Under the pieces are notes generated by a model. It ran no database searches. It had not been told where the DNA came from and worked only from the letters and a program-made list of their open reading frames with translations. From Desulfobacteraceae bacterium (lineage in GTDB: Bacteria > Desulfobacterota > Desulfobacteria > Desulfobacterales > ETH-SRB1): DNA of 46,185 nucleotides. This document shows, piece after piece, positions 7,040 to 39,149 of this stretch (its first letter is position 1; each line of letters begins with the position of its first letter). The stretch lies in contig JABZFQ010000054.1 of assembly GCA_014237365.1 (NCBI GenBank), positions 1 through 46,185 of the forward strand, read 5' to 3'. The position numbers and the translations under genes are program-made.

Positions 7040-10000
7040 ATGAAATTTATTGCAGATATTCATGTTCATTCTAAATTTGCAAGAGCAACAGCAAAAAATA
7101 TGGATCTTGAGAATCTATATATTTCAGCTCAACTTAAAGGAATAACAATTGTCGGAACTGGTGATTTTACACATAACGGATGGTTTTCGGAAATAAAAGA
7201 GAAATTGCAACCGGCTGAGGAAGGACTTTTTAAACTAAAAGATGAGTTATCTCAAAAATGCGATGAAAAAGTTCCATTATCATGCCGCAATAAAGTCCGC
7301 TTTCTTTTAACTTCAGAAATCAGCAATATATATAAGAAAAATAATAAAACTCGAAAAAATCATAATCTTGTATTTATGCCTGATCTTGATTCCGTATATA
7401 GCCTGAATTTAAAGTTAGATAAAATTGGTAATATAAAATCAGACGGAAGGCCCATTCTTGGTTTAGATGCCAGGGATCTTCTGGAGATAGTTCTAGAAAC
7501 ATCAGAATCAGCACTCTTTATACCCGCTCACATATGGACCCCCTGGTTTTCGCTTTTTGGTTCAAAATCAGGTTTTGATTCCATTGAAGAGTGTTTTGAA
7601 GATCTTTCTAATTATATTTATGCTGTAGAAACGGGTCTTTCTTCAGATCCATTGATGAACTGGAGGGTTTCAGGTCTGGACGGTCTTACGCTTGTATCAA
7701 ATTCTGATGCTCATTCCCCTTTTAATCTCGGCAGGGAAGCGAATATTTTTAGTACAAGCCTTTCTTATCCAAATGTTATATCGGCAATAAAATCAGGTAA
7801 TCCAGGAGAATTTTTAGGAACTTTCGAGTTTTATCCTGAGGAGGGAAAATACCATCTTGATGGACACAGAAAATGCAAGGTTTGTTTAAAGCCAAACCAG
7901 AGTATAGCAAATAATGGTTTGTGTAATGTATGTGGAAAACCCCTGACTCTCGGCGTGTTATACAGAATTGAAGAGTTGGCGGACCGACCCGAAGGTTTAA
8001 AACCGGAAAAATCACATCCATATTATAATATTATTCCTCTCGCAGAAATATTATCAGAAATTTTAAATGTAGGACCAAAATCTAAAAAAGTTCAGCGAAA
8101 TTATATGGCTGCGCTCGAATCCCTAGGGCCGGAATTCGAAATACTTCATAATCTTTCTATAAATAATATTGAAAAAGCCGGTATCCCTTTACTTGGAGAG
8201 GCAATTAATCGTATGCGCAAAAAAAAGGTTACTATTTTTCCAGGTTATGATGGAGAATATGGAAAGGTAAAAATTTTCATACAGGGCGAGAAGGAAAAAC
8301 TTTTAGGACAAAAACAACTGTTTATTATTCCTGAAGAGACAACTTCCCTTGTTGCAGACACTTTGGTTAAATCCTTAACGCATCAAAAAACTTGTAAAAT
8401 TCCAAAAAAACAGACACCCCGGTTTTCCAAAGAACCAATTAAAACAAAAGATAATACACCAGGAAAAATATTTAATCCACTTAATAAAGACCAGCTCAAA
8501 GCAGTTAAGCATAAAACCGGCCCTTTGTTGATTGTGGCCGGCCCGGGCACAGGTAAAACACTTACACTCACACACAGAATCGCTTATATTATCACAGAAA
8601 GAAAGGTTTCGACAGATAATATACTTGCTGTAACATTTACAAACAAAGCAGCTCGTGAAATGAGGGACAGGCTTTTATTATTAATGGATAAAACAAAAAA
8701 TCTGCCTGAAGTTACTACATTTCATTCTTTTTGTTTTAAAATTTTAAAAGATCTGAATAATGATAAAAATTATACGATAATAGATGATTATGATCGAAAG
8801 GAATTAATAATAGAGGCAATAAACCAGGCTGAAATTAAAGGAGTTAAAGTTTCAAGAAAACCCCTGGCCCTGTTAAAGATGATTGTTTTTGCTAAACAAA
8901 ACATACTTTCTCCGCAAGACAATTTAAAAGAAATAAATGAATCGGAAAGAGAAGAACTTTCTGTTATTTATAAGGAATATCAAAGTATTTTATCAACTGA
9001 GGAGCTTTACGATTATGAAGATTTGATTTTTAATATAGTAAGGCTGTTAGAATCAGAAATGGATTTTTGTAAAAAATATCAAGATAAATACAAATATATA
9101 TTTGTTGACGAATATCAGGATTTAAACCAGGGACAATATAGAATTATAAAAGCCCTTACAAAGCCTGACAGCAATATATGTGTTATCGGTGATCCAGACC
9201 AGTCAATATATGGATTCAGGGGTTCAGATATTCGTTATTTTAAGAGCTTTCTTAGAGACTACCCCGAAGCTGAGGCTATAAATCTAAATCAAAACTATCG
9301 ATCAACCGAAACCATACTTGAAGCATCATACCAGACCATAAAAAACCATAGAGATTACAATGCATTGGATTCTGCTTCACGTGTTTATTCCGATATTAAA
9401 GGGTCAAAAAAAATAAATATTATTGAGCTTGTTTCTGAAAAAGCTGAGGCCGTAGCTATTGGTAAGATAATCGAAAAAATGGTAGGAGGAATTGGATTTC
9501 ATTCTATTGACTACGGAAGCGTTGATAGTTCTTGTACAAAAAAACAAATGGGTTTTTCTGATTTTGCAGTGTTATTTAGATCCTGGATTCAAAGCAAGAT
9601 CATTGCAGATGTTTTTGATAAGGCCAATATTCCATATCAGATAATAAGTAGAGAAAATGCTTTTAATTCAAAGGGTGTTTCAGAGCTGTTATCTTTTTTA
9701 AAAATAATTGATGGGAGAGGTTCTTATATTGATTTTGAAAGAATTATATATTTAACAAAATCAGGTATCGGTAAAAAAACCTTAGAAACATTCAAAACAT
9801 GGTGTTATAAAAACAAATTTTCGCTTAAAGAAGCTATTTTAAAAGCTTGTCGTTTTCCTGTTGATGGTATGAGCAGGTCAAGCCAGCAGAAGCTTTATGA
9901 TTTTATTACTGATATCTTAAAAATAAAAGAAAAGATTAAAGATTTGATCCTTGAGGAAAAACTTTTGTATTTATCTGAAAAAACAAAAATCAAAGATATA

Positions 10001-10456
10001 ATTACAGAACAAGCCTTAAACGATATAATTGTTATGACACGCAATCCGGATGTAAAATCCAGAGACCTTCTTTCATCAGTAGCTCTTCATACAGATACGG
10101 ATATTTATTCCTCCCGGGCAGAAAAAGTCTCACTAATGACCATGCATACAGCCAAAGGTCTTGAGTTTCCGGTGGTTTTTATTTCCGGCTGCGAAGACGG
10201 ATTTATACCTATGAGAAAATACGGAGATGAAGAACCGGACATTGACGAAGAAAGAAGGTTGTTTTATGTAGCAATGACTCGTGCAAGAGAAAAACTTTAC
10301 TTTACATATGCAAAAAAACGCAGAGTTTATGGAAAGATGATTGCAAGAGAGATTTCTCCGTTTATAAACGATATAGAAATGAGTTTAATAAAACATGAAG
10401 AGAGCCATTTTAAAAAAACAAAAAAGAAAACCGGTGTTCAGTTAAAATTATTTTAA
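7040..10456 (+). CDS. PHP phosphoesterase with zinc ribbon (COG1379-like) fused to UvrD/Rep superfamily 1 helicase
   Basis: N-term DIHVHSKFA, CKVCLKPNQ...CNVCGKPL; C-term AGPGTGKTLTLTHRIAYII, FVDEYQDLNQGQYRI, GDPDQSIYGFRGSD, MTMHTAKGLEFPVVF, RRLFYVAMTRAREKLY. Confidence 0.93.
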   Translation: MKFIADIHVHSKFARATAKNMDLENLYISAQLKGITIVGTGDFTHNGWFSEIKEKLQPAEEGLFKLKDELSQKCDEKVPLSCRNKVRFLLTSEISNIYKKNNKTRKNHNLVFMPDLDSVYSLNLKLDKIGNIKSDGRPILGLDARDLLEIVLETSESALFIPAHIWTPWFSLFGSKSGFDSIEECFEDLSNYIYAVETGLSSDPLMNWRVSGLDGLTLVSNSDAHSPFNLGREANIFSTSLSYPNVISAIKSGNPGEFLGTFEFYPEEGKYHLDGHRKCKVCLKPNQSIANNGLCNVCGKPLTLGVLYRIEELADRPEGLKPEKSHPYYNIIPLAEILSEILNVGPKSKKVQRNYMAALESLGPEFEILHNLSINNIEKAGIPLLGEAINRMRKKKVTIFPGYDGEYGKVKIFIQGEKEKLLGQKQLFIIPEETTSLVADTLVKSLTHQKTCKIPKKQTPRFSKEPIKTKDNTPGKIFNPLNKDQLKAVKHKTGPLLIVAGPGTGKTLTLTHRIAYIITERKVSTDNILAVTFTNKAAREMRDRLLLLMDKTKNLPEVTTFHSFCFKILKDLNNDKNYTIIDDYDRKELIIEAINQAEIKGVKVSRKPLALLKMIVFAKQNILSPQDNLKEINESEREELSVIYKEYQSILSTEELYDYEDLIFNIVRLLESEMDFCKKYQDKYKYIFVDEYQDLNQGQYRIIKALTKPDSNICVIGDPDQSIYGFRGSDIRYFKSFLRDYPEAEAINLNQNYRSTETILEASYQTIKNHRDYNALDSASRVYSDIKGSKKINIIELVSEKAEAVAIGKIIEKMVGGIGFHSIDYGSVDSSCTKKQMGFSDFAVLFRSWIQSKIIADVFDKANIPYQIISRENAFNSKGVSELLSFLKIIDGRGSYIDFERIIYLTKSGIGKKTLETFKTWCYKNKFSLKEAILKACRFPVDGMSRSSQQKLYDFITDILKIKEKIKDLILEEKLLYLSEKTKIKDIITEQALNDIIVMTRNPDVKSRDLLSSVALHTDTDIYSSRAEKVSLMTMHTAKGLEFPVVFISGCEDGFIPMRKYGDEEPDIDEERRLFYVAMTRAREKLYFTYAKKRRVYGKMIAREISPFINDIEMSLIKHEESHFKKTKKKTGVQLKLF

Positions 10457-13951: not shown

Positions 13952-13994
13952 TCTATAAAGGTTGAAGTTCTATTTCGACCTCGTTTCTACAGAC

Positions 13995-14086
13995 TTTCAG
14001 ATAATTAATTTTACAAGGCCAGAAGGAGGAAGGCGTATTAGTTATACGTCGACGACTGATAACGCAGTGAAATTAATTATCTGAAA
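13995..14086. repeat. Intergenic inverted-repeat element, 17-bp arms TTTCAGATAATTAATTT/AAATTAATTATCTGAAA
   Basis: Arms 13995-14011 and 14070-14086; internal small hairpin CGTAT-TAGTT-ATACG. Confidence 0.7.
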
Positions 14087-14134
14087 ATCTGAAAGTAGTG
14101 AAAGCTACATGTTTCAGAAGGATGGTGGGTAGAT

Positions 14135-16789
14135 ATGCAAAATAAAAATAGTGTTTTTAAAAACGGAAGCGTGTGGTTGAAAGCTGATTTTCACCTTCAT
14201 ACAAGAACTGATAAGAAATTTAAGTATGATGGTGAAGAAAATGATTTTATAAATAATTACATCAAACAGCTCAAAAAAAATGATGTTGGAATCGGCCTGA
14301 TTACAAATCATAATAAATTTGACTTGGGCGAATATAAAGCTCTTAAAAAGAAAGGCGTTAAGGAAAACATTTATTTATTGCCGGGTGTGGAGCTTTCCGT
14401 AAATGACGGCTCAAACGGCATACATTGTTTAATTGCTTTTGATTATGATGTCTGGGTAAAAAATAATGATAACTTTATCGAACAGTTTCTTAATTCCGCA
14501 TTTGAAGGTGTTGCCAATCGTGAAAATAAAAACATCCGGTGCAAATACAGCCTTTCTGATTTATTTAAAAAACTTGAAGAACACAAAAAAGCCCGGCGGG
14601 ATTCGTTTGTCATTATGGCGCATATTGAACAAAAAAGCGGTTTTTGTAATGAACTTGATGGTGGCAGAATAACGCAAATCGCAACTGATGAGCATTTTAA
14701 AAAAAATGTATTGGGATTTCAGAAATTAAGAACAATTGATTTAAGAAACAAACTTGTTGAATGGTTCAACGGTGAAAACAACATACCTGTTTTTCTTGAA
14801 GGGTCAGACCCTAAAAAGCTTGATGAGGTTGGGATCCCCTGTAAGCAGTCTGATGAAAATGGTATTGAAGTTACAAAAGAATCTTATATAAAAACAGGAG
14901 ATTATAATTTTGAAGCTATAAAATATGCTTTAACTGATAGAGAAAACCGTATCTCAACAGAAAAACCTGAAATTAATAACGCTTATATTAAATCAATTTC
15001 TTTCGAGGGCGGATTATTAGACAGGACAGAAATAAATTTTTCTCCTGAACTGAATAATTTTATCGGTATCAGGGGCAGCGGCAAATCATCTATCCTTGAA
15101 ATACTTCGCTACACACTTGGAATTTCATTAGGCAATCAGGCAAGTGACAGAGAATATAAAAACAGCCTTATTGAGCATGTGTTAAAAAGCGGCGGCAAAG
15201 TAATAACTATAGTTGTTAATGAACATAAAAAAGAATACCGGATCGAAAAAATATATGGTCAAAAGGAAGATATTTATGAAAATGGAAAGCGTATAGACGT
15301 GCCCTCTATTGATACTGTATTTAAAAAACCGGTTTATTTTGGACAAAAAGACCTTTCTAATAAAAATATTGATTTTGAAGCAGACCTCGTCAAGAAGCTT
15401 ATCGGAAACAAACTTGAAAATATCAAATCAAAAATAGCCATTAAAATAGCGGAAATCAAAAATATTATTACAGCGTCTAAAAAACTTGATAATATTGATG
15501 AACTAAAGAAAGAGATAAATGAGGTTGCCGAGAAGGCAAAATACCAGATCGCAGTGTATAAAGAGAAAGGGGTTGAAGGCAAACTGCGTCAGCAAAGCCG
15601 GTTCGATTCCGATATTTCAAGATTTAAGGAATTTTTAAATGATATTTCAAGATTTAAAAATGAAATTGAATCCTTGATAAATGACTACGCAACATTTTTT
15701 AATCAAACCGGTTTTGAGTCTGAAGAAAATAAAGAAATCTTTAGCGAAGCTGATAACTCGTTCAGACAGCTTGCAATCGAATTCAACAAATTAAATGAAA
15801 TCAAGGAAAATACAGAAAAGCATGAAACCGCATTTATTGAACTTTTTAGCAAATTAAATGAAAAAAAGGAAAATCTTAAAGAAGATTTTGCTAAAATTAA
15901 AAGAAAAATAGACATCCCAAACCTTAATCCTGATGACTTTCTCAAACTTAACCGTCAAATTGAAATATGCAGATTAAAGCTTATTGAGATAGAAAAGTCT
16001 GAAAAGAAAAAAACTGAATATAATACCTTTTTAAACAAAAAAATATCCGAACTGAACAAGTTGTGGCATGAGGAATATAAGATACTGGAAAAAGAAGTAA
16101 AGAGAATTAATGAATATGAAAATTCGCTTTCTATTACAGTTGAATACAAAGGAAGAAAAGATAAGTTTTTAAACAAACTCAAACAAATTTTTAAAGGAAG
16201 CGGTATAAGAGAAGCAACTTATAATTCAATTAAATCATCATACAAAGATTTTATTGAAATATACAGAGATATGAACAACCTGAATTCAAATCTGAATATA
16301 AGTGAAAATTTATTAGCTGAATTTAAAAAGCGGTTTGAAGACAATATTTTTAATTTAATTTCATTTCGTGTGGAAGACAAGTTTATAATTAACTATAATG
16401 ACAAACCGTTAAAAGACCATTCTCTCGGACAAAGAGCAACAGCGCTGATACTATTCCTTCTTGCTCAAAAAGAGACTAATGTGTTGATAATTGATCAGCC
16501 GGAAGATGATTTGGATAACCAGACGATTTATGAAGATGTTATAAAGGCGATAAAATCTTTAAAAGGCGATATGCAGTTCATTTTTGCAACTCATAATGCC
16601 AATATTCCGGTTCTTGGCGACAGCGAAAAGATACTCTCGTGCAAATATTCGGAATCAAAAATTGAAGTTCACGATGGAACGATTGACAATTATGACACAC
16701 AGAAACAAATTGTTACAATAATGGAAGGCGGAGAAGAAGCTTTCAACCGCCGTAAAAACATATATGAATTATGGAGTATGAAAAAATGA
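14135..16789 (+). CDS. TrlF-like PHP domain plus SMC-like AAA ATPase
   Basis: KADFHLHTRTDKKF, GLITNHNKFD, LPGVELSV; FIGIRGSGKSSILEILRYTLG Walker A; long coiled coil; SLGQRATALILFLLAQ signature; VLIIDQPEDDLDNQTIYEDVIKAIK Walker B. Confidence 0.88.
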   Translation: MQNKNSVFKNGSVWLKADFHLHTRTDKKFKYDGEENDFINNYIKQLKKNDVGIGLITNHNKFDLGEYKALKKKGVKENIYLLPGVELSVNDGSNGIHCLIAFDYDVWVKNNDNFIEQFLNSAFEGVANRENKNIRCKYSLSDLFKKLEEHKKARRDSFVIMAHIEQKSGFCNELDGGRITQIATDEHFKKNVLGFQKLRTIDLRNKLVEWFNGENNIPVFLEGSDPKKLDEVGIPCKQSDENGIEVTKESYIKTGDYNFEAIKYALTDRENRISTEKPEINNAYIKSISFEGGLLDRTEINFSPELNNFIGIRGSGKSSILEILRYTLGISLGNQASDREYKNSLIEHVLKSGGKVITIVVNEHKKEYRIEKIYGQKEDIYENGKRIDVPSIDTVFKKPVYFGQKDLSNKNIDFEADLVKKLIGNKLENIKSKIAIKIAEIKNIITASKKLDNIDELKKEINEVAEKAKYQIAVYKEKGVEGKLRQQSRFDSDISRFKEFLNDISRFKNEIESLINDYATFFNQTGFESEENKEIFSEADNSFRQLAIEFNKLNEIKENTEKHETAFIELFSKLNEKKENLKEDFAKIKRKIDIPNLNPDDFLKLNRQIEICRLKLIEIEKSEKKKTEYNTFLNKKISELNKLWHEEYKILEKEVKRINEYENSLSITVEYKGRKDKFLNKLKQIFKGSGIREATYNSIKSSYKDFIEIYRDMNNLNSNLNISENLLAEFKKRFEDNIFNLISFRVEDKFIINYNDKPLKDHSLGQRATALILFLLAQKETNVLIIDQPEDDLDNQTIYEDVIKAIKSLKGDMQFIFATHNANIPVLGDSEKILSCKYSESKIEVHDGTIDNYDTQKQIVTIMEGGEEAFNRRKNIYELWSMKK

Positions 16790-17949
16790 ATGCACTGGAA
16801 TTGCTTGATATGATAAACGCAGGCGAAACAAGCTGTGTGCAGTTTAAAAAAAAACTTCAGCCGAAACAGGCCGGAGATATTGTCGCTGAAATGGTTGCCA
16901 TGTCAAATTTTGAAGGGGGAACAATTTTAGTTGGAGTTGAAGATAAAACCGGAAATATAAATGGTCTGAGTTTTACAGAGATTGAAGCAGTAAACAATTA
17001 TTTATTTAACTGGGCAACAAACAATATCAAACCTTCTGTAGCAGTTTTTACCGAAACAGTTAATATTGAGGGAAAAAATGTTCTAATTGTCACGGTACCA
17101 CGTGGTATTGATAAACCGTATTGTGATAACGATATGGTTTATTGGATAAAATCAGCAGCAAATAAAAGGAAAGTATCGCCTGAAGAATTGAAGCGTTTGT
17201 TTCAGTCAGCCGAAAAATTATATGCCGAGCGGGAGTATATTAAAGATAGCAGTATTTCCGACATTGATTTGACCCTGTTCAGAAAATTTTATGAGAATAG
17301 ATTCGAAGAAAAATTTGATAAGGATGCAATTTCACGTTTAATGACCAACCTTAAACTGGCAAAAGATGATAAACTTACATTAGCCGGCGCCCTGATGTTC
17401 AGCAAAAACTGTGAAATTTTACTGCCTGATTTTTATATCTCCGCAATATGGTTTTGGAACGATGATTTTATTGTTGATGAGTATCGGGCAAGTAATAACA
17501 TTACGGGCAATATAGCACAGCAGTATAAAAAAGCTATTGATTTTGTCTTGGGTGCCTTGAAAAGAGTGCAGAACGACAAAAGTTTTAACAGTATTGGAAC
17601 AATAGAAATTCCCGAAATAGTTTTGGTAGAAATTCTCGTTAACGCGCTGGTTCATAGAGACTACTTTATACATGATTCAATAAAACTCTTTGTTTTCGAG
17701 AACAGGATAGAAATAAAAAGCCCAGGCAAATTGCCGAACAACCTTACTGTCGAAGATATCAAGCATGGGATTCAGCGGCGTTCAAGAAATGTCATTCTTA
17801 CTTCCTTTATAAGTGATATATTACCATACAGAGGTGTTGGAAGCGGCATATTGAAAGCATTAAAAGCTTATCCGAAAATTGATTTTGAAAATAACACACA
17901 AGCTGAATATTTTAAAGTCACCATTCACAGACCCGAAGAAAAACGATGA
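16786..17949 (+). CDS. AlbA_2 (Schlafen-type) domain ATP-binding protein, COG2865
   Basis: ESSCVQFK-like TSCVQFKKKLQPKQAGDIVAEMVAMSNFEGGTILVGVEDKTG; VEILVNALVHRDYF; GVGSGILKAL; ATG overlaps the upstream TGA (ATGA). Confidence 0.88.
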   Translation: MNALELLDMINAGETSCVQFKKKLQPKQAGDIVAEMVAMSNFEGGTILVGVEDKTGNINGLSFTEIEAVNNYLFNWATNNIKPSVAVFTETVNIEGKNVLIVTVPRGIDKPYCDNDMVYWIKSAANKRKVSPEELKRLFQSAEKLYAEREYIKDSSISDIDLTLFRKFYENRFEEKFDKDAISRLMTNLKLAKDDKLTLAGALMFSKNCEILLPDFYISAIWFWNDDFIVDEYRASNNITGNIAQQYKKAIDFVLGALKRVQNDKSFNSIGTIEIPEIVLVEILVNALVHRDYFIHDSIKLFVFENRIEIKSPGKLPNNLTVEDIKHGIQRRSRNVILTSFISDILPYRGVGSGILKALKAYPKIDFENNTQAEYFKVTIHRPEEKR

Positions 17950-18059
17950 AACTCCATTTTGCCCCCAATCAGCAGTACCAGCTTGATGCTGTAAAATCCA
18001 TAATTGATCTTTTTGAAGGCCAGTCTTTTTTGTCTCCATCAAGCAACAATTCCGGGTAA
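17946..18059 (+). pseudogene. Truncated N-terminus of a type III restriction (Res) subunit
   Basis: MKLHFAPNQQYQLDAVKSIIDLFEGQSFLSPSSNNSG*, a typical Res start; ATGA overlap with the upstream gene; terminates early. Confidence 0.6.
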
Positions 18060-18259
18060 TTGTTCAAAAAAGGAAAACAATCTCTATCTGCTATATCTGA
18101 GCTGGGCATAGAAAAAAAATGACTGGAACCACAGTTGCCGGCAAAAGCGGAAGCTGCCGGCCATATTCTCGTACAACACGCTTTTGATATAGAAAAAATT
18201 GCACCAAAATCTGAAAAATCACCGTGGATTTTAATCATTAAACTGGAAATACTTAAACG

Positions 18260-20302
18260 ATGAACATTCTCCAATACGAATCAAAGATATGGGCAACTGC
18301 TGACTTATTGCGTGGCTGCGGTATTAAGGAATCCGAATGGCCATCCTTCATGATGCCGTTTTTTGCCCTTGCTATGATTGAAAGTCGCCTGGTGCGCATG
18401 TTTGACGATCTCAAAGCTGAAATCGGTGAAAAGATATTTAACGGTATAGATAAAAATGACCGTTACGACCTGATCCGCGACAAAGGTCAGGGGTATAACA
18501 TCTTCATTCTTGAAAAAGGCCGGTCATTAACCGACATCTGCAAAAACGACAAATCGTTTGATATAGACTTTGATGCCTATCTTCAAGGTTTTGATGGCGA
18601 AACCAAAGACCTGCTTGGCGTGGACGCTACCGAGGGCGAAAAATTTCTCGACATCAAAGGCGTGATCACCAAACTCAAAGCCAAAAAGGTCTTGCTGGGT
18701 TTTACCAAATTATGGGCAGAGATTGATCTGACACCCTTCAATAACTCCGAAATCACCACTCTGGAAGAACACATCAAACGCAAGTGGGCGGATATCTCTG
18801 CCGAAACAGCAGGGGAGCAATACACGCCCGACGATGTGATCGCACTGATTGCCGAAATTATTGCTTCCAAAATTGAAGAATCCGACACCCTCTTAAAAAT
18901 TTACGATTGCACCTGCGGCGGTGGTAATATGCTGTTTGGGGTTGAAGACCGCATTAACCAAAAATTCGAACGCCTGACCCAAACCTTTGGGCAAGACTGG
19001 AACGACGCACTCTACGCGCTGGCGAAAATTGAAAGCCGTTTTCGCCCTGATTCCAAAATCGAACATGGCAACACCCTGGTGGAAGACAAGTTCTACAACG
19101 ATGAATTCGATGTGGTTATCGCCAATCCGCCCTATGGCGTGAGCTGGAAAGGCTATGCAAAAGACATCAAAAACGATAAAACCGAACGCTTTAAATATGT
19201 GCCCTCAATCTCAGACGGGCAACTGCTGTTTATGCAGCACCTCATATCCAAGCTCGACAGCGCAGGCATGGGCGTAGTGGTTCACAACGGTTCAACTCTG
19301 TTTAGTGGCGATGCCGGCTCGGCAGAAAGTAATATCCGTAAATGGATGTTAGACAGCGATATTGTTGAAGCAGTAATACAACTGCCAACTGATGAATTCT
19401 TTAACACGGGCATTTACACTTATTTGTGGGTGCTGAATAAAAACAAACAGCCACACAACAAAAACAAAGTGATGCTGATTAACGCCAGCGACAAATTCAA
19501 ACCGCTGAAAAAAAGTAAAGGCTCCAAACGCAAAGAAGTGGACAAAGCCAGCCGTTTAGAGATTGTAGAAACACTTACAAAATACCGGAATAACGATTAC
19601 GCCAAAGTGTTTGATAAAGAATTTTTTTACTTCAACAAACAGGCCATCAGGCTTACTAATGTTGATGAACAGGACAACAGCTTTGCCGATCAGCTTTCTG
19701 AGGGGAAAAAGTCTCTCAAGCTAAAACCGATGACTCTCTTTGATGGAACAACCACGCTGAACAGTTTTGAAATTACCGACTACGATAGAGAGCAGTTCTC
19801 TTCTCTCAAAGAGTGTTTTGCAGAGCAGTGGAAATCATGGGCAGCAGGGCTTGATTACAAAGAACAGCCCATTGCCGTTACTACAAAAGTGGGTGTTTAC
19901 TCCTACAATAACGAAAAAGAGATGCTGATCTGCAGGCAGAACGGTACAACCAAAGAGCTTGGCTGTGGAAAAATCGTTATTAAAGCAGCGTACAAAAAAG
20001 CAGTAAAAAGAAAAATTGAGCATATTGCCGTTACAGTAGAACTTACGCCGGATTACCTGAAAGATTATGAGATCATCCCCTTCCATAAAGACGAAGCCGC
20101 CAATCAGGCTGCTATTGCCTCCTTTATGGCCAAATACATCAGCAAGCCCTTTGAATATTTGGAAAATGTGGTGGGCGTGGAGCTGAATTTTAACAAGATT
20201 TTCTACAAGCCGGAAAAGCTGCGGGAGGTGAGCAAAATTTTGGGAGAAATTGCAGTGCTTGATCACAAGTTAAAGGAATTAGAAGCGGAATTGGCATTAT
20301 GA
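18260..20302 (+). CDS. hsdM: Type I restriction-modification DNA methyltransferase
   Basis: GEQYTPDDVIALIAEI, DCTCGGGNMLFG, DVVIANPPYGVSWKG. Confidence 0.93.
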   Translation: MNILQYESKIWATADLLRGCGIKESEWPSFMMPFFALAMIESRLVRMFDDLKAEIGEKIFNGIDKNDRYDLIRDKGQGYNIFILEKGRSLTDICKNDKSFDIDFDAYLQGFDGETKDLLGVDATEGEKFLDIKGVITKLKAKKVLLGFTKLWAEIDLTPFNNSEITTLEEHIKRKWADISAETAGEQYTPDDVIALIAEIIASKIEESDTLLKIYDCTCGGGNMLFGVEDRINQKFERLTQTFGQDWNDALYALAKIESRFRPDSKIEHGNTLVEDKFYNDEFDVVIANPPYGVSWKGYAKDIKNDKTERFKYVPSISDGQLLFMQHLISKLDSAGMGVVVHNGSTLFSGDAGSAESNIRKWMLDSDIVEAVIQLPTDEFFNTGIYTYLWVLNKNKQPHNKNKVMLINASDKFKPLKKSKGSKRKEVDKASRLEIVETLTKYRNNDYAKVFDKEFFYFNKQAIRLTNVDEQDNSFADQLSEGKKSLKLKPMTLFDGTTTLNSFEITDYDREQFSSLKECFAEQWKSWAAGLDYKEQPIAVTTKVGVYSYNNEKEMLICRQNGTTKELGCGKIVIKAAYKKAVKRKIEHIAVTVELTPDYLKDYEIIPFHKDEAANQAAIASFMAKYISKPFEYLENVVGVELNFNKIFYKPEKLREVSKILGEIAVLDHKLKELEAELAL

Positions 20303-21649: not shown

Positions 21650-22786
21650 ATGAACAATAAAAAAGACAGGTTTGACGATTTTGAACCTGCTGAATCTAAA
21701 GACCTGGAAAATGAATCTCTTGATCTAAAAGACCCTTTTGATCCAAAAGAGATTGATATCCAAGTCCAGCAGACAACAATGAGTACCCTGATTGATCGTC
21801 TTGCCCATAATGAAATTGATCTAAACCCGGATTTTCAAAGGACTGCTGATTTATGGAACTCTAAAACAAAAGGACGTTTGATAGAATCTCTTCTTATTCG
21901 TTTTCCAATCCCTGCCTTTTACTTTGATGCAACAGATGAAGATAAATGGTTGGTTGTAGATGGGTTGCAACGACTCACGTCAATAAAAAAATTTGTGATT
22001 GACAAAAATTTGAAGTTGAATGGCCTTGAATTCATTAAAGAGTTTGAAAAAAAAAATTATGATAATTTACCAAGGACTTTTAAAAGAAGAATTGATCAAG
22101 CTCCTGTAACGCTTTATTTAATAAAGCCTGGCACTCCTCAAAATGTTAAGTACAGTCTGTTTTACAGGATAAATACAGGGGGATTAACATTAAACCCTCA
22201 GGAAATACGACACGCATTAAGTCAAAGCATAAACGATGCACAGGCTTCCATATTTCTCAAAAGGTTATCTGATCTTGAAATATTTCAAAGGTGTGTAAGG
22301 GTTTCCGATAGAAGAATGCTCGATAAAGAGCTTGTTCTCAGGTATATTGCGTTTAAGCTTACCGATTTTAAACACTACAAAGAACCTATGATTAAATTCT
22401 TAAACGATACAATGGAAGATCTTGGGAAAATTAAAACTTCAAGATTAGAGCTGTTGGAAAAAGGATTTGAAAAAGCAATAACCCTGGCGTGGGAGATTTT
22501 TGAAGAGGATGCTTTTAGAAAATCAATATTAGATAAACAATCAACAAGAAAAGTTGTAAACAGGGCATTGTTTGAGGTAGTTACCGTTGTTTTTTCTGAT
22601 TTAAATGATGACGAGGCTGCTATAATAAAAAGCAATAAACAGGGCTTTGTTAATGATTATCTTAACCTGCTTGGAGAAAAAAAATTTAACGAAGCAATAT
22701 CAACAACATATTCTAAGAATATAATTTACAGATTTGAAAAATTTCAGAATCTTGTCAATATCCATATAGCGAAGGCTGAGGGATAA
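21650..22786 (+). CDS. DUF262 (ParB-like/GmrSD N-terminal-like) protein
   Basis: LIDRLAHNEIDLNPDFQRTADLWNSKTKGRLIESLLIRFPIPAFYFDATDEDKWLVVDGLQRLTSI. Confidence 0.9.
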   Translation: MNNKKDRFDDFEPAESKDLENESLDLKDPFDPKEIDIQVQQTTMSTLIDRLAHNEIDLNPDFQRTADLWNSKTKGRLIESLLIRFPIPAFYFDATDEDKWLVVDGLQRLTSIKKFVIDKNLKLNGLEFIKEFEKKNYDNLPRTFKRRIDQAPVTLYLIKPGTPQNVKYSLFYRINTGGLTLNPQEIRHALSQSINDAQASIFLKRLSDLEIFQRCVRVSDRRMLDKELVLRYIAFKLTDFKHYKEPMIKFLNDTMEDLGKIKTSRLELLEKGFEKAITLAWEIFEEDAFRKSILDKQSTRKVVNRALFEVVTVVFSDLNDDEAAIIKSNKQGFVNDYLNLLGEKKFNEAISTTYSKNIIYRFEKFQNLVNIHIAKAEG

Positions 22787-22788
22787 AA

Positions 22789-23275
22789 ATGATCAGCAAT
22801 ATTAAGATAAAAAATTTTTGGGGAAAAACATTTTACCGCAATTGAAGCGGAGAGAAAAGATAGTTGCAAAAAGGGTGAAGTATTGTGGGAACAGAAAGAA
22901 CTTGAATTTGAGAATCTTATCTTCTGCAAATCTACAGAAAAACAGTTTAAACAACTCTTTATAAATAGTGCAACTTTTGATAAACTATGGAATAATTTAC
23001 AGAAATTAAATGAGTTTGTTTGCAACTGTAGAAATGATGATGATCTGAAAGTGAAAGCAAATCTCAATTTTTCTAATGAGAGTAAAAGCGTTAAAAACAA
23101 TCCTAAGTTGAGAAGATACAGGGATATTAGACTCCCGGATGGAAGCAAAAAATTTTTTGGGTTACATATTAAGAATTTTCCAGCAGCGCTGAGATTACAT
23201 TTCTATCCTGATTATATCAATCAGAAAATCTTTATCGGGTATTTTGGAAAACATTTGCCTACAAAGAAAAACTAA
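22789..23275 (+). CDS. Small unknown protein downstream of DUF262 gene; likely frameshifted near its start
   Basis: ATG at 22789 gives MISNIKIK then shifts at AAAAAATTTTT; removing one A joins it to IFGEKHFTAIEAERKD...YRDIRLPDGSKKFFGLHIKNFPAALRLHFYPDYINQKIFIGYFGKHLPTKKN. Confidence 0.5.
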
Positions 23276-23359: not shown

Positions 23360-24709
23360 ATGCTAACAGAATCAAATCGAATCGAACTCAAAAGAGAGCT
23401 TACCGATTCTCTTGAAAAAGAAGTGGTGGCTTTTCTCAATTACCGTGAAGGCGGCCATATTTATATTGGCATTGACGATGCTACCGGCGCTGTGGTGGGA
23501 GTGCCCGATTGTGATGCGGTTCAACTTAAAATTAAAGATCGTATCAAAAACAATATCAGGCCATCTGCTCTGGGTATTTTCGATGTCATTGCTGAACAAC
23601 ACGATGATAGAACTGTTATCAAAATTACCGTTGCCAGTGGTTCTGAAAAACCCTATTACTTGAAAAAACAAGGCATGTCTGAACGAGGTTGTTTTATTCG
23701 GATTGGCAGTGCATCGGAACCGATGTCGTTACGCATGATTGAGGATCTCTTTTCCCGGAGGATTCGTAATTCCATTGGGTCAATAAAATCTCGCAAGAAA
23801 GATCTCACCTTTGAGCAGTTAAAAATTTATTACGGCGAAACACCCTTAAAGCTGAATGACAAATTTGCTTATAATCTGGAACTGCTTACCGAAGAAGGTG
23901 AGTTCAACTATGCCGCTTATCTGCTCTCGGATTCAAATGGTCTTTCCGTCAAGGTTGCCAAATATGCCAGCCTTGATCGTGTGGATCTGATTGAGAACGA
24001 GGAATACGGCTACTGCTCTCTTATCAAGGCAACCAAACAGGTTCTGGCTAAACTGGCGATTGAAAACAAAACCTTTGCCAAAATTACCCCTCGAAAACGG
24101 CAGGAGCGCAAACTGATTGACCCTGTTGCGCTTCGTGAAGCGGTCATCAATGCCATAATCCACAACAACTATACTAACGAAATACCACCAAAGTTTGAAT
24201 TCTTTCCAAACCGCTTAGAGATAACTTCCGCAGGTGGTCTTCCGCAGGAATTCGATGAAAATGAGTTCTTTATGGGATATTCAGTTCCGCGCAACAAAGA
24301 ACTGATGCGGGTTTTTAAAGATCTTGAGATGGTTGAATACCTTGGATCAGGAGTACCGCGCATTCTGCGGAAATATCCACGCTCTGTTTTCATATTTACC
24401 CCAAATTTTATCCGCATTATTTTTCCTTTTGAGAAAAGCCTTGATGATGGTCAGACTACTTTAACCGACCAGGCTACCATGCAAGCTACCATGCAAGCTA
24501 CCATGCAAGCTACCATGCAGGCTGACAAAGTACTCCAATTCTGTTTAGAACCACGCAGTCGTGATGAAATTCAGTCGTTTCTTGGTATTAAAAACCGTGA
24601 TTATTTCCGAAAAGAGATACTAAATCCGCTTATTAAAGAAGGAAAAATAGCTCCAACCATACCCAACAAGCCATCCAGTCCCAAACAACGCTATATCGCA
24701 ATCAGTTAA
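23360..24709 (+). CDS. Second AlbA_2 domain ATP-binding protein
   Basis: ESNRIELKRELTDSLEKEVVAFLNYREGGHIYIGIDDATG; LREAVINAIIHNNYTN; VEYLGSGVPRILRKY. Confidence 0.9.
   Translation: MLTESNRIELKRELTDSLEKEVVAFLNYREGGHIYIGIDDATGAVVGVPDCDAVQLKIKDRIKNNIRPSALGIFDVIAEQHDDRTVIKITVASGSEKPYYLKKQGMSERGCFIRIGSASEPMSLRMIEDLFSRRIRNSIGSIKSRKKDLTFEQLKIYYGETPLKLNDKFAYNLELLTEEGEFNYAAYLLSDSNGLSVKVAKYASLDRVDLIENEEYGYCSLIKATKQVLAKLAIENKTFAKITPRKRQERKLIDPVALREAVINAIIHNNYTNEIPPKFEFFPNRLEITSAGGLPQEFDENEFFMGYSVPRNKELMRVFKDLEMVEYLGSGVPRILRKYPRSVFIFTPNFIRIIFPFEKSLDDGQTTLTDQATMQATMQATMQATMQADKVLQFCLEPRSRDEIQSFLGIKNRDYFRKEILNPLIKEGKIAPTIPNKPSSPKQRYIAIS
24473..24520 (+). repeat. Four 12-bp in-frame tandem repeats GCTACCATGCAA
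   Basis: Direct reading; encodes ATMQ x4 inside the AlbA_2 gene. Confidence 0.97.
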
Positions 24710-24726
24710 AATGAGGGAAATGAATA

Positions 24727-27700
24727 ATGAACGAATTATACCTGCAAGATAAATTTTTAATTCCGTTTTTTCGGGATTGCCTGGGTTACGCTGAAGTAAA
24801 AGCCAATACCGTCACGCAATCGCTGATTATTGAAGAAGACTTGCAGGAATTTATTTCTGGTACCGAACTGAACAAAAAGCCTTATAAAAACCTGCTGAAA
24901 AAATACCGGGGCAACAAAAAGCAATTGCTGAAAGAGTTGATTGCGTCTATTCAGGAGCGTATCGCCAGCAGCCGTAATATGGCCTTGTTTATCAATGCCA
25001 ATAAGTCCATCACCTTGCAGGGCGTTAAGCTGCATCTGTTTTACACCAGCGACAGTGTGATTCACGGCAACGCGCTATTTGATGAAAATATTTTTTCTGT
25101 GGTGCAGGAGCTGCCCTATAAATACAGTTACCAGGGCAAGCAGGCATTCTCCTTCCGCCCGGATATCGTGCTGTTTGTGAATGGTATTTATTTGGGGTAT
25201 AGCGAATTAAAAAATAACTACACCAACCAAAGCGCAAGCAAAAATGGCCGTGGCAAAGTCATCAAAGATTATTTTGAAGCAGTTAAAGTCTATCACCAAC
25301 ATATTGATAGTAATGCCATGTTGAGTGATAACAAAAAACAAATCTTCCGCAAAGACTTCCTCAAAATTTTTGAAAAAGCGATTCATATTACCACTACTGA
25401 TATTGGTGAAACCTTTGTAATTCGCACTATTGCGGATTATTTTGACGAGATTCTATCCACATGCCATGAACGTAAGTTTGACCGCGAAAAAATTGAGAAA
25501 AAAGCCCGCGGCGTGTTTAAACCCTATCCTCTGCTGAAGCCCGATGCTGATAAAAAGGACAAGCTGAAAGAGTTGTTTGCTGCGCTCTATGGCAAGTTTT
25601 TTATTGAAAAAGAAGATTTTGTATTACAACTTTATCGAGCGTGATGTGTACGTTAACAATGGTGTAAAAGAAGTCAAAAATGAAGCAGGGCATTTAATTT
25701 CTCCACGTCCCAAGCAGAAATTCGGCACCGATAAAATCATGACCAAAATTGATGAGTTTTTGGCGCACGAACAAGAGCCGGATTATTTTGAAAAACTGTT
25801 AGAAAAACAATTGGCAGGCATAAACGACACCAGGAAAAAAGAGCTGATTGAAAAGCGTAAAGCCTATTCAAATAATAAAAACGTGTATTCCTTGCTGATG
25901 CAATACGCGGCAGGGTTTGGTAAATCCAATATTATCGGCTGGTCTGCATTGCAACTGAAAGACTTGAGGCGCAATGGTGAATATGTTTACGATAAAATCA
26001 TGATTGTTGTGGACAGATTACAACTGCGCAGCCAGATTGATTCGCTCATGCTGAACATGAACATCGACAATCGCATGTATATGGAAGCCACCAATAAAAA
26101 AACCTTTCAAGCCGCGCTGTCGTCCGATACTCGTTTGGTGATTGTGAACTTGCAAAAATTCGGTGCGGTGCGCGAAATGATGGACGTGGAGGTTCTGCAA
26201 AAGCTTGCCAAAATGCGTATTGTGTTTTTGATTGACGAGATCCACCGTTCCAACAGCGGCGACCAGCATGAAGAAATGGTGAGCATTTTCGACGAACTGC
26301 AAAGCCCGTTTGACAATGCAGCCTATGCCATGGCAAGCACAAAAAAGAATCTGATTATCGGCTTTACCGCTACTCCAAATGACCATGCTCTGGCGCGTTT
26401 TGGTGAATTCAGTGGTTATGCCGAAAGCGAAAAACTCTGGCGGCCTTTTGATAGCTATACCATGCAAGAGGCGATTGATGATGGTTTTATTCTTAATCCT
26501 TTGAAAAATATCGTACCTGTGGCATCCAAAATGTTGTTTGATTTGCCGGCTAATCCGTTAAAAGGTTTTACTGAAAAAGAATTCAAAGACGCACAAAAAA
26601 AACAAATCTATGAAAACCGCGAGCGCATTGATGCCATCGCCAGGTATGTGGCGGACTTATTGGTGAAAGACGTGTATCGCCAAATACGCGGCACGGGTAA
26701 AGCAATGCTGGCGGTCTATTCCATTAAATCGGCCATTGCCTATCAATCGGCGGTAACCAAGTATTTCAATGCGTTGGTGCAAGAACCCAAATATGTCAGA
26801 TATGCTGATGCACCGATTCATGTGGTGTACTCAAGTAATCAGGACGAACAAAGTGCTACTGGGCTGAATGGTGGCTTGACGGAAGAAAAGGTCTTGGAAA
26901 GCTTTGCGCTGAAGAAAAATGGTTTGATGATTGTGGTGGCAAAGCTGCAAACCGGCTTTGATGAAAAAAAGCTGCATACCTTGTTTCTGGATAAAGAAAT
27001 TAAAGGCATCAGCGCTATTCAAACGATTTCCCGTGTCAATCGCACAGCTAAACATAAGAACGACTGCAAAATTGTGGATTTTTCATACAATAATGTGAAT
27101 GTGCAAAACATTAAAGACGCGTTTGAACACTTTTCTGATGTAGTAATAAGTGACTTTGACCCATTTAGCGATAAGAAGGTATTGGATATTCTGCTGATAG
27201 ATTTGAAAAAATCAGATACCTTTAATAAGTTTTTTGCAGTGTTCATGGCGATATATAAGGATGCAGTCAAGCGCAATGATCCTGAAAGCTATCTGGACTT
27301 TGAAAGCAGCTTGAAAAAATACATTGACGCGAACCCGCAACGCACCGCAGACACCAAAGCCAAGGCAGCACAGTATTTCACTATCCTCAATCGTATTGAG
27401 TATGTGATTGAGCTGAATTCCAGGTATAGTGAGCCGAGTTTTTTATTTTTCTGGCGCAAGTTTAATATTCTTTACAACATGATGCACCGCAGTGATGATG
27501 TGAAAGACCCGATTGAGGTGTATTTTGATAATCAGATTGGAATTATTGAAGTAACGACTTATGATCCTAAACCCAAACCGAAGCCACTCAACGTGGCTGA
27601 GGGTGCACCACCTTATGGTGGTGGTCAATTTGATATTCTCGCCATCATTGCCGCACGTAATGAGCAGGAAGCCAAAACAGGGGCACTGATTCAGGACTTT

Positions 27701-27943
27701 GAATCCAAGATTTTGAACTTCTTTTGCTATGTGCGCAATACAAACGAGGGCGAGCGACTGATCGTAAAAATTAGATCGCATGTATCTGAAGCTGAAATTT
27801 ATGATGATTTTGCCAAGATATATCGTCGTTACAAGGCACTCAACCGACAGATCATTGGGGATTACTTCTTCAAAGAAACCGAAGACCTGGTTGATAAACT
27901 CTCTGATGATTTTGAAGTAACGGTACGTAATGCCAATGAATGA
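24727..27943 (+). CDS. hsdR: Type I restriction endonuclease R subunit split into two frames (24727-25644 and 25577-27943)
   Basis: N-part FRPDIVLFVNGIYLGYSELKN (HSDR_N), C-part YAAGFGKSNIIGW, FLIDEIHRSNSGD, GFTATPNDHAL; conceptual join EKEDF|YYNFIERDVYVNNG by skipping one base near 25621. Confidence 0.88.
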
Positions 27944-36984: not shown

Positions 36985-39149
36985 CTAACCAATCAACCCG
37001 GCTTCCTGGAAGCTGTAATATCCCTTTCTAGCCACAACAAGATGATTTAAAATCCGAATTCCAAGTATCTTTCCTGCCTCAGTCAGTTGTTCATGGATTT
37101 TCAAATCGCTGTTACTGGGTTTCAGATCACCGGAAGGATGGTTATGTGCAAATATTACAGCCGCAGCTCTGTCTATGACATCCGCATAAACTTCACGTGG
37201 ATGCACCTGGCTGCGATCCACCAGGCCAATGGTGACGATTCTTTTTTTTATTACTTCATGAGCGCCATTAAGGGAAATGCAGACAAAATGCTCTTGCTTT
37301 TTATCGGCAATATCAGCCAGCAACGGTATCACATCCTGGGCGCCTGTTATTTTTACAGTATCGTTAATCAGATGCCGTCTTGCCAGTTCAAAGGCGGATA
37401 AAATCTGGGCAGCCTTAGCCATGCCCATTCCACGCACCGCCGTGAGATGTTCGACAGATAGATTTTCCCTGTGCTTGCGGATCAGTTTGGCAACATTTTT
37501 AGAATCGGTATAGGAAATGCTCGTGTCTCTGTCGGTAAAAGCGGTAAATGCAACCAGCGTTTTGATATCGGTATATCCTTTTTCCTTAATGTATTTATCG
37601 AATTCTGTTTTATATCGGATAACATGGGGCCTTGATGAAGTGACAACCATTGCCTTTGCTTTTCCACCTATCTTAGGCATAACGCATTGCCGGAAATGTT
37701 CAATAATAACCTCGGTTTTCTGAGCCAGATTATGGGGATGAAGAGAGAGAAACCTGGCTATTGCCCGGCGCGCCTTTTTCTTGTTGATATCGGGGTCATC
37801 TTCAATGGCTTTTGACAGTCTGAAATAGGTCTTATAGGTAGTGTAGTATTTTAACACATCCAGGATAAAGTTTTCTTCAATCGCCTGTCTCATGGAATAA
37901 AGGTGAAAAGGGGCTGGTTTTCCGTCATCGCCGGTTTGGCCGAAAACTTCGAGGGTTTTTGCTTTGGGTGTTGCGGTAAATGCGAAAAAGGCAAGGTTGG
38001 GCTGCTTGCCTCGCGCCAACATTGAGCTTCTAATCTCATCTTCAATGTCATGATTTTTGCCATACTCAGGCGGCTCATTCCTGATATCATCATCACTCAT
38101 ATCAATAACCGTCAGGGTTTCTTTCATCTTTTTTGAAGCCTCACCGCCTTGGGAGCTGTGGGCTTCATCTATAATTATGGCGTAGTTTCTTTTTGGAAGC
38201 TCTCCGATCTTATCGAGTACAAAAGGAAATTTTTGAAGGGTGGTGATAATTATATTGATTCCGGCGCTTAAGGCCAAGGCAAGCTGGGTGGAATCCTTGT
38301 CAATCTTTTGAACAACGCCGAGCTTATGTTCAAACTGGTATATGGTGTTCTGGAGCTGTTGATCCAAAACGAGCCTGTCCGTGATAACAATTATTGAATC
38401 AAAAATCCTTTTATCTTTATTATTATGCAGACTGGATAACCTGTATGCAAGCCATGCAATGGAATTGCTTTTGCCGCTGCCTGCTGAATGCTGGATCAGA
38501 TAATTATTACCCGAGCCTTTTTGCCTGGCATCCCGGGTCAGCTTTCTGACAACATCCAGTTGATGAAACCTTGGAAAGATCAGCTTTTCTTTTTTAAATA
38601 TTTTCCCGTCGACCTTATATTCGTCGGTCTGCAAGAGAAGAAAGGAGCCGATGATATCCATCCAGCTATCTTTGGCCCAGACATATTCCCACAGATAGGA
38701 GGTTTTGTGGCCGTTTGGATTAGGAGGATTGCCGGCGCCCTTATTGCAGCCCTGATTAAAAGGAAGATAGCGGGTGGCTTTGCCTTCAAGCCTGGTTGCC
38801 ATGTAAGCTTCGTCGGTATCAACGGCAAAATGCACGAGAGCGCGTTTTTTGAATTTAAAAAGCAGTTCGTTTGAATCTCTGTCAACCGCATACTGCCATT
38901 TGGCATTTGCCGCATTCTGGCCGGTAAACTGGTTTTTCAGCTCCACAGTTGCCACAGGCAGGCCGTTTAGACTGAACAGCATGTCAATTGAGTTTTCATT
39001 TTTAAGGCTGTATTTTACCTGACGGGTCACGGTGAGCCGGTTTTTGTTGTACAAGGCAATCGTTTCAGGATTCAGTTTGCTGGCCGGTTTGAAACAGGCC
39101 ATCTTAAAATTGCTTCTTCAAATGCCTGTTCTGTGGTTGTCGAGGTCAT
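36985..39149 (-). pseudogene. Chimeric, internally deleted type I HsdR joined in frame to RadC C-terminal (JAB) domain
   Basis: ATG at 39149 gives MTSTTTEQAFEEAIL then a jump to FKMACFKPASKLNPETIALYNKNRLTVTRQ; HsdR helicase motifs to LVAFTAFTD; then RadC AVRGMGMAKAAQILSAFELARRHL...HNHPSGDLKPSNSD. Confidence 0.85.

What the first reader, a model, noticed from the sequence alone, without database searches (positions are those of the whole stretch)
14135..18059. TrlF-like PHP/SMC ATPase, AlbA_2 protein and a truncated Res: an ancestral three-gene defense operon
Seen: both junctions have ATGA start/stop overlaps (16786-16789 and 17946-17949), a sign of translational coupling. The third gene reads MKLHFAPNQQYQLDAVKSIIDLFEGQ, a type III Res-like start, then stops. 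Inference: TrlF-AlbA_2-helicase/nuclease formed one coupled unit that lost its effector, or the first two genes now work with the downstream type I system.
Basis: partly seen in the sequence, partly recalled or inferred. Interest (0 to 1): 0.66.

Follow-up and report, generated by a model that had tools for sequence, protein, structure and literature searches.

The report
Orphaned TrlFG defense module, restriction remnant
Two intact, translationally overlapped genes (TrlF, an SMC-like ATPase with a nuclease-type domain, and TrlG, a Schlafen-like protein) are what is left of a type III restriction operon whose methyltransferase and most of whose restriction gene are gone; relatives show that this pair is a portable accessory that plugs in beside many kinds of methylation-based phage defense and swaps its TrlG half.

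Summary
Both ATGA junctions exist, ORF1 is a bona fide TrlF (NCBIfam 513 bits, cut-off 350), ORF2 is AlbA_2 plus a GHKL-type ATPase domain, and the 37-codon ORF3 begins with 26 codons of a type III Res. The pair is already published as trlF-trlG of the Photorhabdus temperature-restriction locus (PMC7554251). The guess of a lost third gene holds, with an amendment. In 22 of 80 named TrlF loci, from about eight phyla, the operon is mod-trlF-trlG-res; the window's nearest relative (TrlF 93%, a Cloacimonadota MAG) is one of them. The window lost mod and truncated res after 26 codons; its genome holds no other copy of this res. But the pair is the module and the restriction system its host: related pairs sit beside BREX and type IIG genes, and a TrlG-less TrlF clade sits inside type I operons. 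Unexpectedly, trlG is exchanged as a cassette: in 5 of 6 pairs of loci with 90-94% identical TrlF, TrlG falls to 44-69%. TrlG lacks one of three residues essential for Schlafen RNase activity (Q for E in 64 of 65). My best guess is a guard-type accessory, now orphaned. Defense function is inferred, not shown.

The parts
14135..16789 (+). trlF: PHP-type N-terminal domain (about aa 10-275, 14162-14959) plus SMC/Rad50-like ATPase with coiled coil (aa 414-661)
   Evidence: NF045780 512.6 bits; model pLDDT 85, Foldseek SMC/MukB/JetC/RecF/Rad50 heads; H20, H22, H59, E86, H163, D225 and GIRGSGKS 311-318 invariant in 61 sequences; omega 0.17 against L061
16786..17949 (+). trlG: AlbA_2/Schlafen-like domain (16825-17175) plus GHKL-type ATPase domain (around 17677-17877)
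   Evidence: Pfam; model pLDDT 88.5, Foldseek DIP2311, Schlafens, SAMD9 tRNase domain and GHKL kinases; same architecture as Photorhabdus TrlG
16786..16789 (+). ATGA start/stop overlap of trlF and trlG
   Evidence: sequence; 4-nt overlap in 27 relatives, longer overlaps in about 30 more
17946..17949 (+). ATGA start/stop overlap of trlG and the res remnant
   Evidence: sequence; 4-nt ATGA/GTGA/TTGA overlap in 7 of 18 relatives scored
17946..18022 (+). first 26 codons of a type III res gene; breakpoint at about 18022/18023; the frame runs on to a stop at 18059
   Evidence: 70/77 nt identical to L061 res, then 9/30; REase_III E 8.7e-6
18023..18263 (+). unidentified remnant between the res breakpoint and hsdM; one frame, with one internal stop, ends in a TGA that overlaps the hsdM ATG, possibly the tail of a lost gene upstream of hsdM
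   Evidence: no relative found among 395 genomes
13990..14091 (.). palindromic repeat element (25-nt arms, 52-nt loop) at the place where mod ends in relatives; about 40 copies in the genome, MITE-like

Best explanation
The window holds an orphaned trlFG module. Shown by sequence: it descends from a type III restriction operon ordered mod-trlF-trlG-res, from which mod was lost on the left (where a MITE-like repeat now lies) and all but 26 codons of res on the right, leaving two intact genes next to an unrelated, itself damaged type I system. Also shown: related pairs sit directly beside methyltransferase genes in several system types, and trlG alleles are exchanged between otherwise conserved operons. 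Inferred: TrlF is a DNA-sensing SMC-like ATPase with a PHP phosphoesterase/nuclease domain, and TrlG is its swappable regulatory or sensing partner, a Schlafen-like domain probably without RNase activity joined to a GHKL ATPase. Inferred and least certain: the module is a growth-arresting guard that acts when the neighbouring restriction system is inhibited or phage DNA ends appear, and it can work alone, so the window pair may still act.
For: Origin: L061 carries the mod 3' end, trlF (93% aa), trlG and the res start; 22 of 80 loci have mod upstream and/or res downstream on the same strand; empty sites exist, e.g. L159 with mod and res 24 bp apart. In the TrlF tree the window is sister to L061 (100), in the TrlG tree sister to L077 (100/100); both carry res after trlG. 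Allele exchange: DNA identity is 91-98% in trlF, 47-70% in trlG, and about 91% again at res; similar gene-bounded drops in L041/L042, L086/L088, L112/L117 and L097/L099. Module: pglX-trlFG-pglZ-brxL in L118 and L139; pglXI-trlFG-brxHI in L121, L122, L129, L130; type IIG in L066, L126; hmaA in L127. Duplicated host-gene 3' ends flank it in L127, L066 and L121. Function: the TRL operon limits growth of Photorhabdus at 36 C through TrlG (PMC7554251); E. coli Ppl, with a PHP exonuclease and an NTPase domain, is antiphage (PMC12904381).
Against: No phage phenotype of any TrlFG pair was found in the papers held. Most of the 80 TrlF loci had no methylation-based system detected next to them, so a guard role cannot be general. 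TrlF is far below the Ppl cut-off (145 of 1000 bits). Whether mod loss was caused by the repeat element is a guess. Most loci are MAG contigs, so binning or assembly error could affect single cases.
Confidence: 0.7

Rival explanations
1. TrlFG is an integral part of a type III variant: TrlF processes the DNA ends made by Res (nuclease recruitment after restriction), and the window pair is dead without Res.
For: Tight coupling and 4-nt overlaps of trlG and res in 7 of 18 loci; PHP exonuclease activity of the distant homolog Ppl on DNA ends (PMC12904381).
Against: Most TrlFG loci have no type III genes detected; the Photorhabdus pair acts without them; window TrlF and L061 TrlF differ with omega 0.17, though this cannot date the loss of res.
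Confidence: 0.2
2. The pair has been adopted by the downstream type I hsdMSR system and works with it.
For: Adjacent, same strand, about 300 bp apart; a distant TrlF clade without TrlG is truly embedded in type I operons (hsdM-trlF-hsdS-hsdR in L053; hsdM-hsdS-trlF-hsdR in L051).
Against: The nearest HsdM relative found (73%) has no trlFG; a remnant and a breakpoint separate the two units; hsdR is frameshifted, unless this is a sequencing error in a T run.
Confidence: 0.1
3. TrlFG is primarily a stress or temperature regulator, not defense; its neighbours reflect only shared mobile islands.
For: The only published phenotype found is temperature restriction of growth (PMC7554251).
Against: Insertion directly between mod and res or pglX and pglZ in the same operon, in many phyla; homology to Ppl; allele exchange of a kind expected in an arms race.
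Confidence: 0.15
4. The low TrlG identity between close loci reflects fast evolution, not replacement.
For: TrlG is divergent overall between distant loci.
Against: Other pairs with 80-89% TrlF have TrlG as similar or more similar (L062/L087 86 and 90; L071/L073 85 and 88); window TrlG is 66% to L077, whose TrlF is only about 56%.
Confidence: 0.08

Closest known systems
Photorhabdus temperature restriction locus trlR-trlF-trlG (PMC7554251)
   Same: Same two genes in the same order and the same TrlG domain positions (AlbA_2 14-128, HATPase_c_4 298-365 there; 14-130 and 298-364 here).
   Different: No trlR found here; here the pair derives from a type III restriction operon; no temperature phenotype is known.
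Type III restriction-modification (mod-res)
   Same: The res remnant and the intact relatives are of this kind.
   Different: mod is absent and res is 26 codons long in the window; most systems sampled have no trlFG between mod and res.
Ppl, single-gene antiphage PHP-NTPase nuclease
   Same: PHP plus SMC-like ATPase organisation; matches over residues 408-873 (PADLOC 104 bits).
   Different: Far below the Ppl cut-off; a single gene, no TrlG partner.
Guard modules beside or inside restriction loci: PrrC in EcoprrI, PARIS (PMC12707154)
   Same: ATPase-plus-effector accessories at restriction or BREX loci.
   Different: Different proteins: PHP-SMC plus a Schlafen-like GHKL protein; guard function not shown.
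Schlafen-histidine kinase-wHTH proteins of BREX loci (PMC12839542)
   Same: Schlafen domain plus GHKL ATPase, found beside BREX genes.
   Different: TrlG is paired with TrlF, is 387 aa with no wHTH domain detected, and has Q in place of the second catalytic E; that paper's text does not mention PHP or TrlF.

Membership tests
TRL (trlFG) operon | TrlF family protein | tested here: met
   NF045780 512.6 bits, cut-off 350
TRL (trlFG) operon | TrlG with AlbA_2 and HATPase_c_4 directly downstream | tested here: met
TRL (trlFG) operon | small regulator trlR upstream | tested here: not met
   no + strand ORF of 60 aa or more ends just upstream; a repeat element lies there
TRL (trlFG) operon | temperature restriction of growth | not testable with these tools
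   needs an experiment
Type III restriction-modification system | complete res | tested here: not met
   26 codons only; no other match in the genome
Type III restriction-modification system | mod | tested here: not met
   none upstream; only partial 30-38% methyltransferase matches elsewhere in the genome
Ppl | reaches the Ppl family cut-off | tested here: not met
   145.2 bits against 1000
Schlafen-type RNase | essential residues E209, E214, K216 of SLFN11 | tested here: not met
   TrlG has E14 and K21 in 65/65 but Q19 in 64/65 (PMC9482658)
PARIS | AriA plus AriB (Toprim) | tested here: not met
   no AriA/AriB match for P0001-P0003 at E 0.01
Antiphage defense system | phage protection | not testable with these tools
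   needs an experiment

The most novel reading that the evidence does not exclude
TrlFG is a widespread plug-in guard for methylation-based immunity, docked next to the methyltransferase of type III restriction, BREX and type IIG systems, with TrlG as an exchangeable recognition subunit (a pseudo-Schlafen GHKL protein) that sets which phage or anti-restriction signal triggers the TrlF SMC-PHP nuclease.
Probability: 0.35. Interest if true: 0.8.

Novelty: new variant of a known kind. Interest (0 to 1): 0.55.

Why it matters
The TrlF family is common (35 of 395 genomes of the phylum sample at E 1e-30; 1119 plasmid records with a homolog), yet the only function found in the papers held is a temperature phenotype. 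Its recurrent place between the methyltransferase and the restriction gene of type III systems, and inside BREX, points to a role in immunity that can be tested directly. The allele exchange marks TrlG as the part under pressure to vary, a handle on what it recognises.

Tried and rejected
Cooperation with the type I system: no support. TrlG as an RNase: the motif is incomplete. The 18023-18263 remnant could not be identified. Direct repeats around the window's own trlFG: only short matches of chance type. Literature searches for a TrlF or PHP-SMC/Schlafen pair in type III restriction found none; [quoted passage not shown] The PADLOC name Nsn = Menshen is from memory; a paper search did not help.

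Full report
What is there. ORF1 (14135-16789), ORF2 (16786-17949) and ORF3 (17946-18059) are as described, with ATGA at both junctions. ORF1 is TrlF by NCBIfam (512.6 bits, cut-off 350). No Pfam family reached E 0.01 for it, but an AlphaFold2 model from 61 relatives (pLDDT 85) shows an N-terminal alpha/beta domain followed by an ATPase head with a long coiled coil, matching SMC, MukB, JetC, RecF and Rad50 heads. PHP-type residues (H20, H22, H59, E86, H163, D225) and the Walker and signature motifs are invariant or nearly so in that alignment. ORF2 has AlbA_2 and HATPase_c_4 domains; its model (pLDDT 88.5) matches DIP2311 over its length, Schlafens and the SAMD9 tRNase domain in the N-terminal part, and GHKL kinases in the C-terminal part (the division by part is my reading of the domain order).

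Already known. The pair is trlF-trlG of the temperature restriction locus (TRL) of Photorhabdus (PMC7554251): the same order and the same domain positions. That paper reports mutations in trlG, and deletion of the operon, that allow growth at 36 C. No other relevant use of the names was found in the papers held.

The third gene. ORF3 starts with 26 codons of a type III Res (PADLOC REase_III, E 8.7e-6). In the intact relatives L041 and L042 the order is mod-trlF-trlG-res, with an 874-aa Res that starts by a 4-nt overlap. A scan of public genomes gave 80 named TrlF loci. TrlG follows TrlF in 78; mod lies upstream and/or res downstream, close by and on the same strand, in 22, spread over about eight phyla (one distant mod in L119 not counted). 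The closest relative, L061 from a Cloacimonadota MAG, has TrlF 93% identical and carries the mod end and the res start. Window and L061 res are identical at 70 of 77 nt up to 18022 and at 9 of the next 30. No other piece of this Res and no close Mod exists in the window's genome (99% complete, so absence is likely but not proven). Where mod should end there is now a 102-bp palindromic repeat with about 40 copies in the genome; its part in the deletion is a guess.

The pair is the module. Of 57 loci with at least 600 bp on both sides, 41 showed neither mod nor res. PADLOC hits show trlFG between pglX and pglZ-brxL (L118, L139), between a PglXI-type methyltransferase and BrxHI (L121, L122, L129, L130), beside type IIG genes (L066, L126) and after hmaA (L127). 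A more distant TrlF clade without TrlG is embedded in type I operons (L051, L053). The 3' end of the host gene is duplicated on the far side of trlFG in L127 (121 bp, 97.5%), L066 and L121, as expected if the pair was inserted there with a copy of that end. The mod-res junction accepts other inserts too: empty in L159, HATPase plus C5 methyltransferase plus Vsr in L158, a different Schlafen-type protein in L171, Fic in L170, a Bro-N protein in L160, a YhcG nuclease in L172.

TrlG exchange. Between window and L061 DNA identity is 91-98% over trlF, 47-70% over trlG, and about 91% at the start of res. L041 and L042 show 93% TrlF, 69% TrlG, 92% Res and 92% Mod. In 5 of 6 independent pairs with 90-94% identical TrlF the TrlG drops to 44-69%, while many pairs with 80-89% TrlF have TrlG at least as similar, so this is replacement and not mere speed. 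Trees agree: window TrlF is sister to L061, window TrlG to L077. The drop is bounded by the gene.

Mechanism. SLFN11 needs E209, E214 and K216 (PMC9482658). TrlG has the matching E14 and K21 in all 65 sequences but Q19 in 64 of 65; human Schlafens lacking one of the three are reported nuclease-deficient, so TrlG is probably not a canonical RNase (inference). Ppl, a distant TrlF relative, is a 3'-5' ssDNA exonuclease activated by nucleotide depletion and DNA ends (PMC12904381). A TrlF-based DNA sensor/nuclease with TrlG as exchangeable partner is the most likely arrangement (inference, about 0.5), and a guard role like PARIS or PrrC (PMC12707154) is the most likely reason for the place beside methyltransferases (inference, about 0.35). 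TrlF shows purifying selection between window and L061 (omega 0.17), which cannot show that the window pair is active after the loss of res.

Limits. Counts come from one pattern-based scan that favours TrlF close to the window's clade, and from contigs often too short to show both sides. Neighbour identification used a limited set of query proteins plus PADLOC on 20 chosen neighbours, so 'neither' means not detected. Most loci are MAGs.

Noticed in passing
window 13990-14091: 102-bp palindromic repeat with about 40 copies in the genome at 80-98% identity: a MITE-like family, directly upstream of trlF.
   Followed up: partly
window 24727-25644 and 25577-27943: hsdR split into 305 and 788 aa by a frame change near a T run at about 25597-25602; real decay or a sequencing error.
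   Followed up: partly
window 21650-22786 and 22883-23275: NsnA-like protein intact, but the next ORF is only the C-terminal 130 aa of an NsnC-like protein and no NsnB was seen: a second deletion scar in the same island.
   Followed up: partly
window 23360-24709: A second AlbA_2 + HATPase_c_4 protein, with a Fic-like C-terminal domain, inside the type I operon; unlike TrlG it keeps E4-x4-E9-x-K11.
   Followed up: partly
window 18023-18263: Unidentified remnant whose frame ends in an ATGA overlap with hsdM; no relative found in 395 genomes.
   Followed up: partly
L158-L175, mod-res junctions: The gap between mod and res of type III systems is a slot for many different inserts (Schlafen-type, Fic, Bro-N, YhcG nuclease, HATPase + C5 methyltransferase + Vsr).
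   Followed up: partly
L112, L117, L120, L129, L066 trlG: One in-frame stop within the trlG match; three of these are related Bacteroidota loci, so it may be more than random decay.
   Followed up: no
L132, L135: 34-bp (100%) and 57-bp (91%) direct repeats flank trlFG, possible insertion footprints.
   Followed up: no
window 36985-39102 (-): 705-aa protein with a partial type I REase match (positions 98-395 of 976), perhaps another damaged hsdR.
   Followed up: no
window 7040-10456 (+): 1138-aa protein whose C-terminal part (about 480-1113) matches GajB-like UvrD helicases, with a long N-terminal extension.
   Followed up: no
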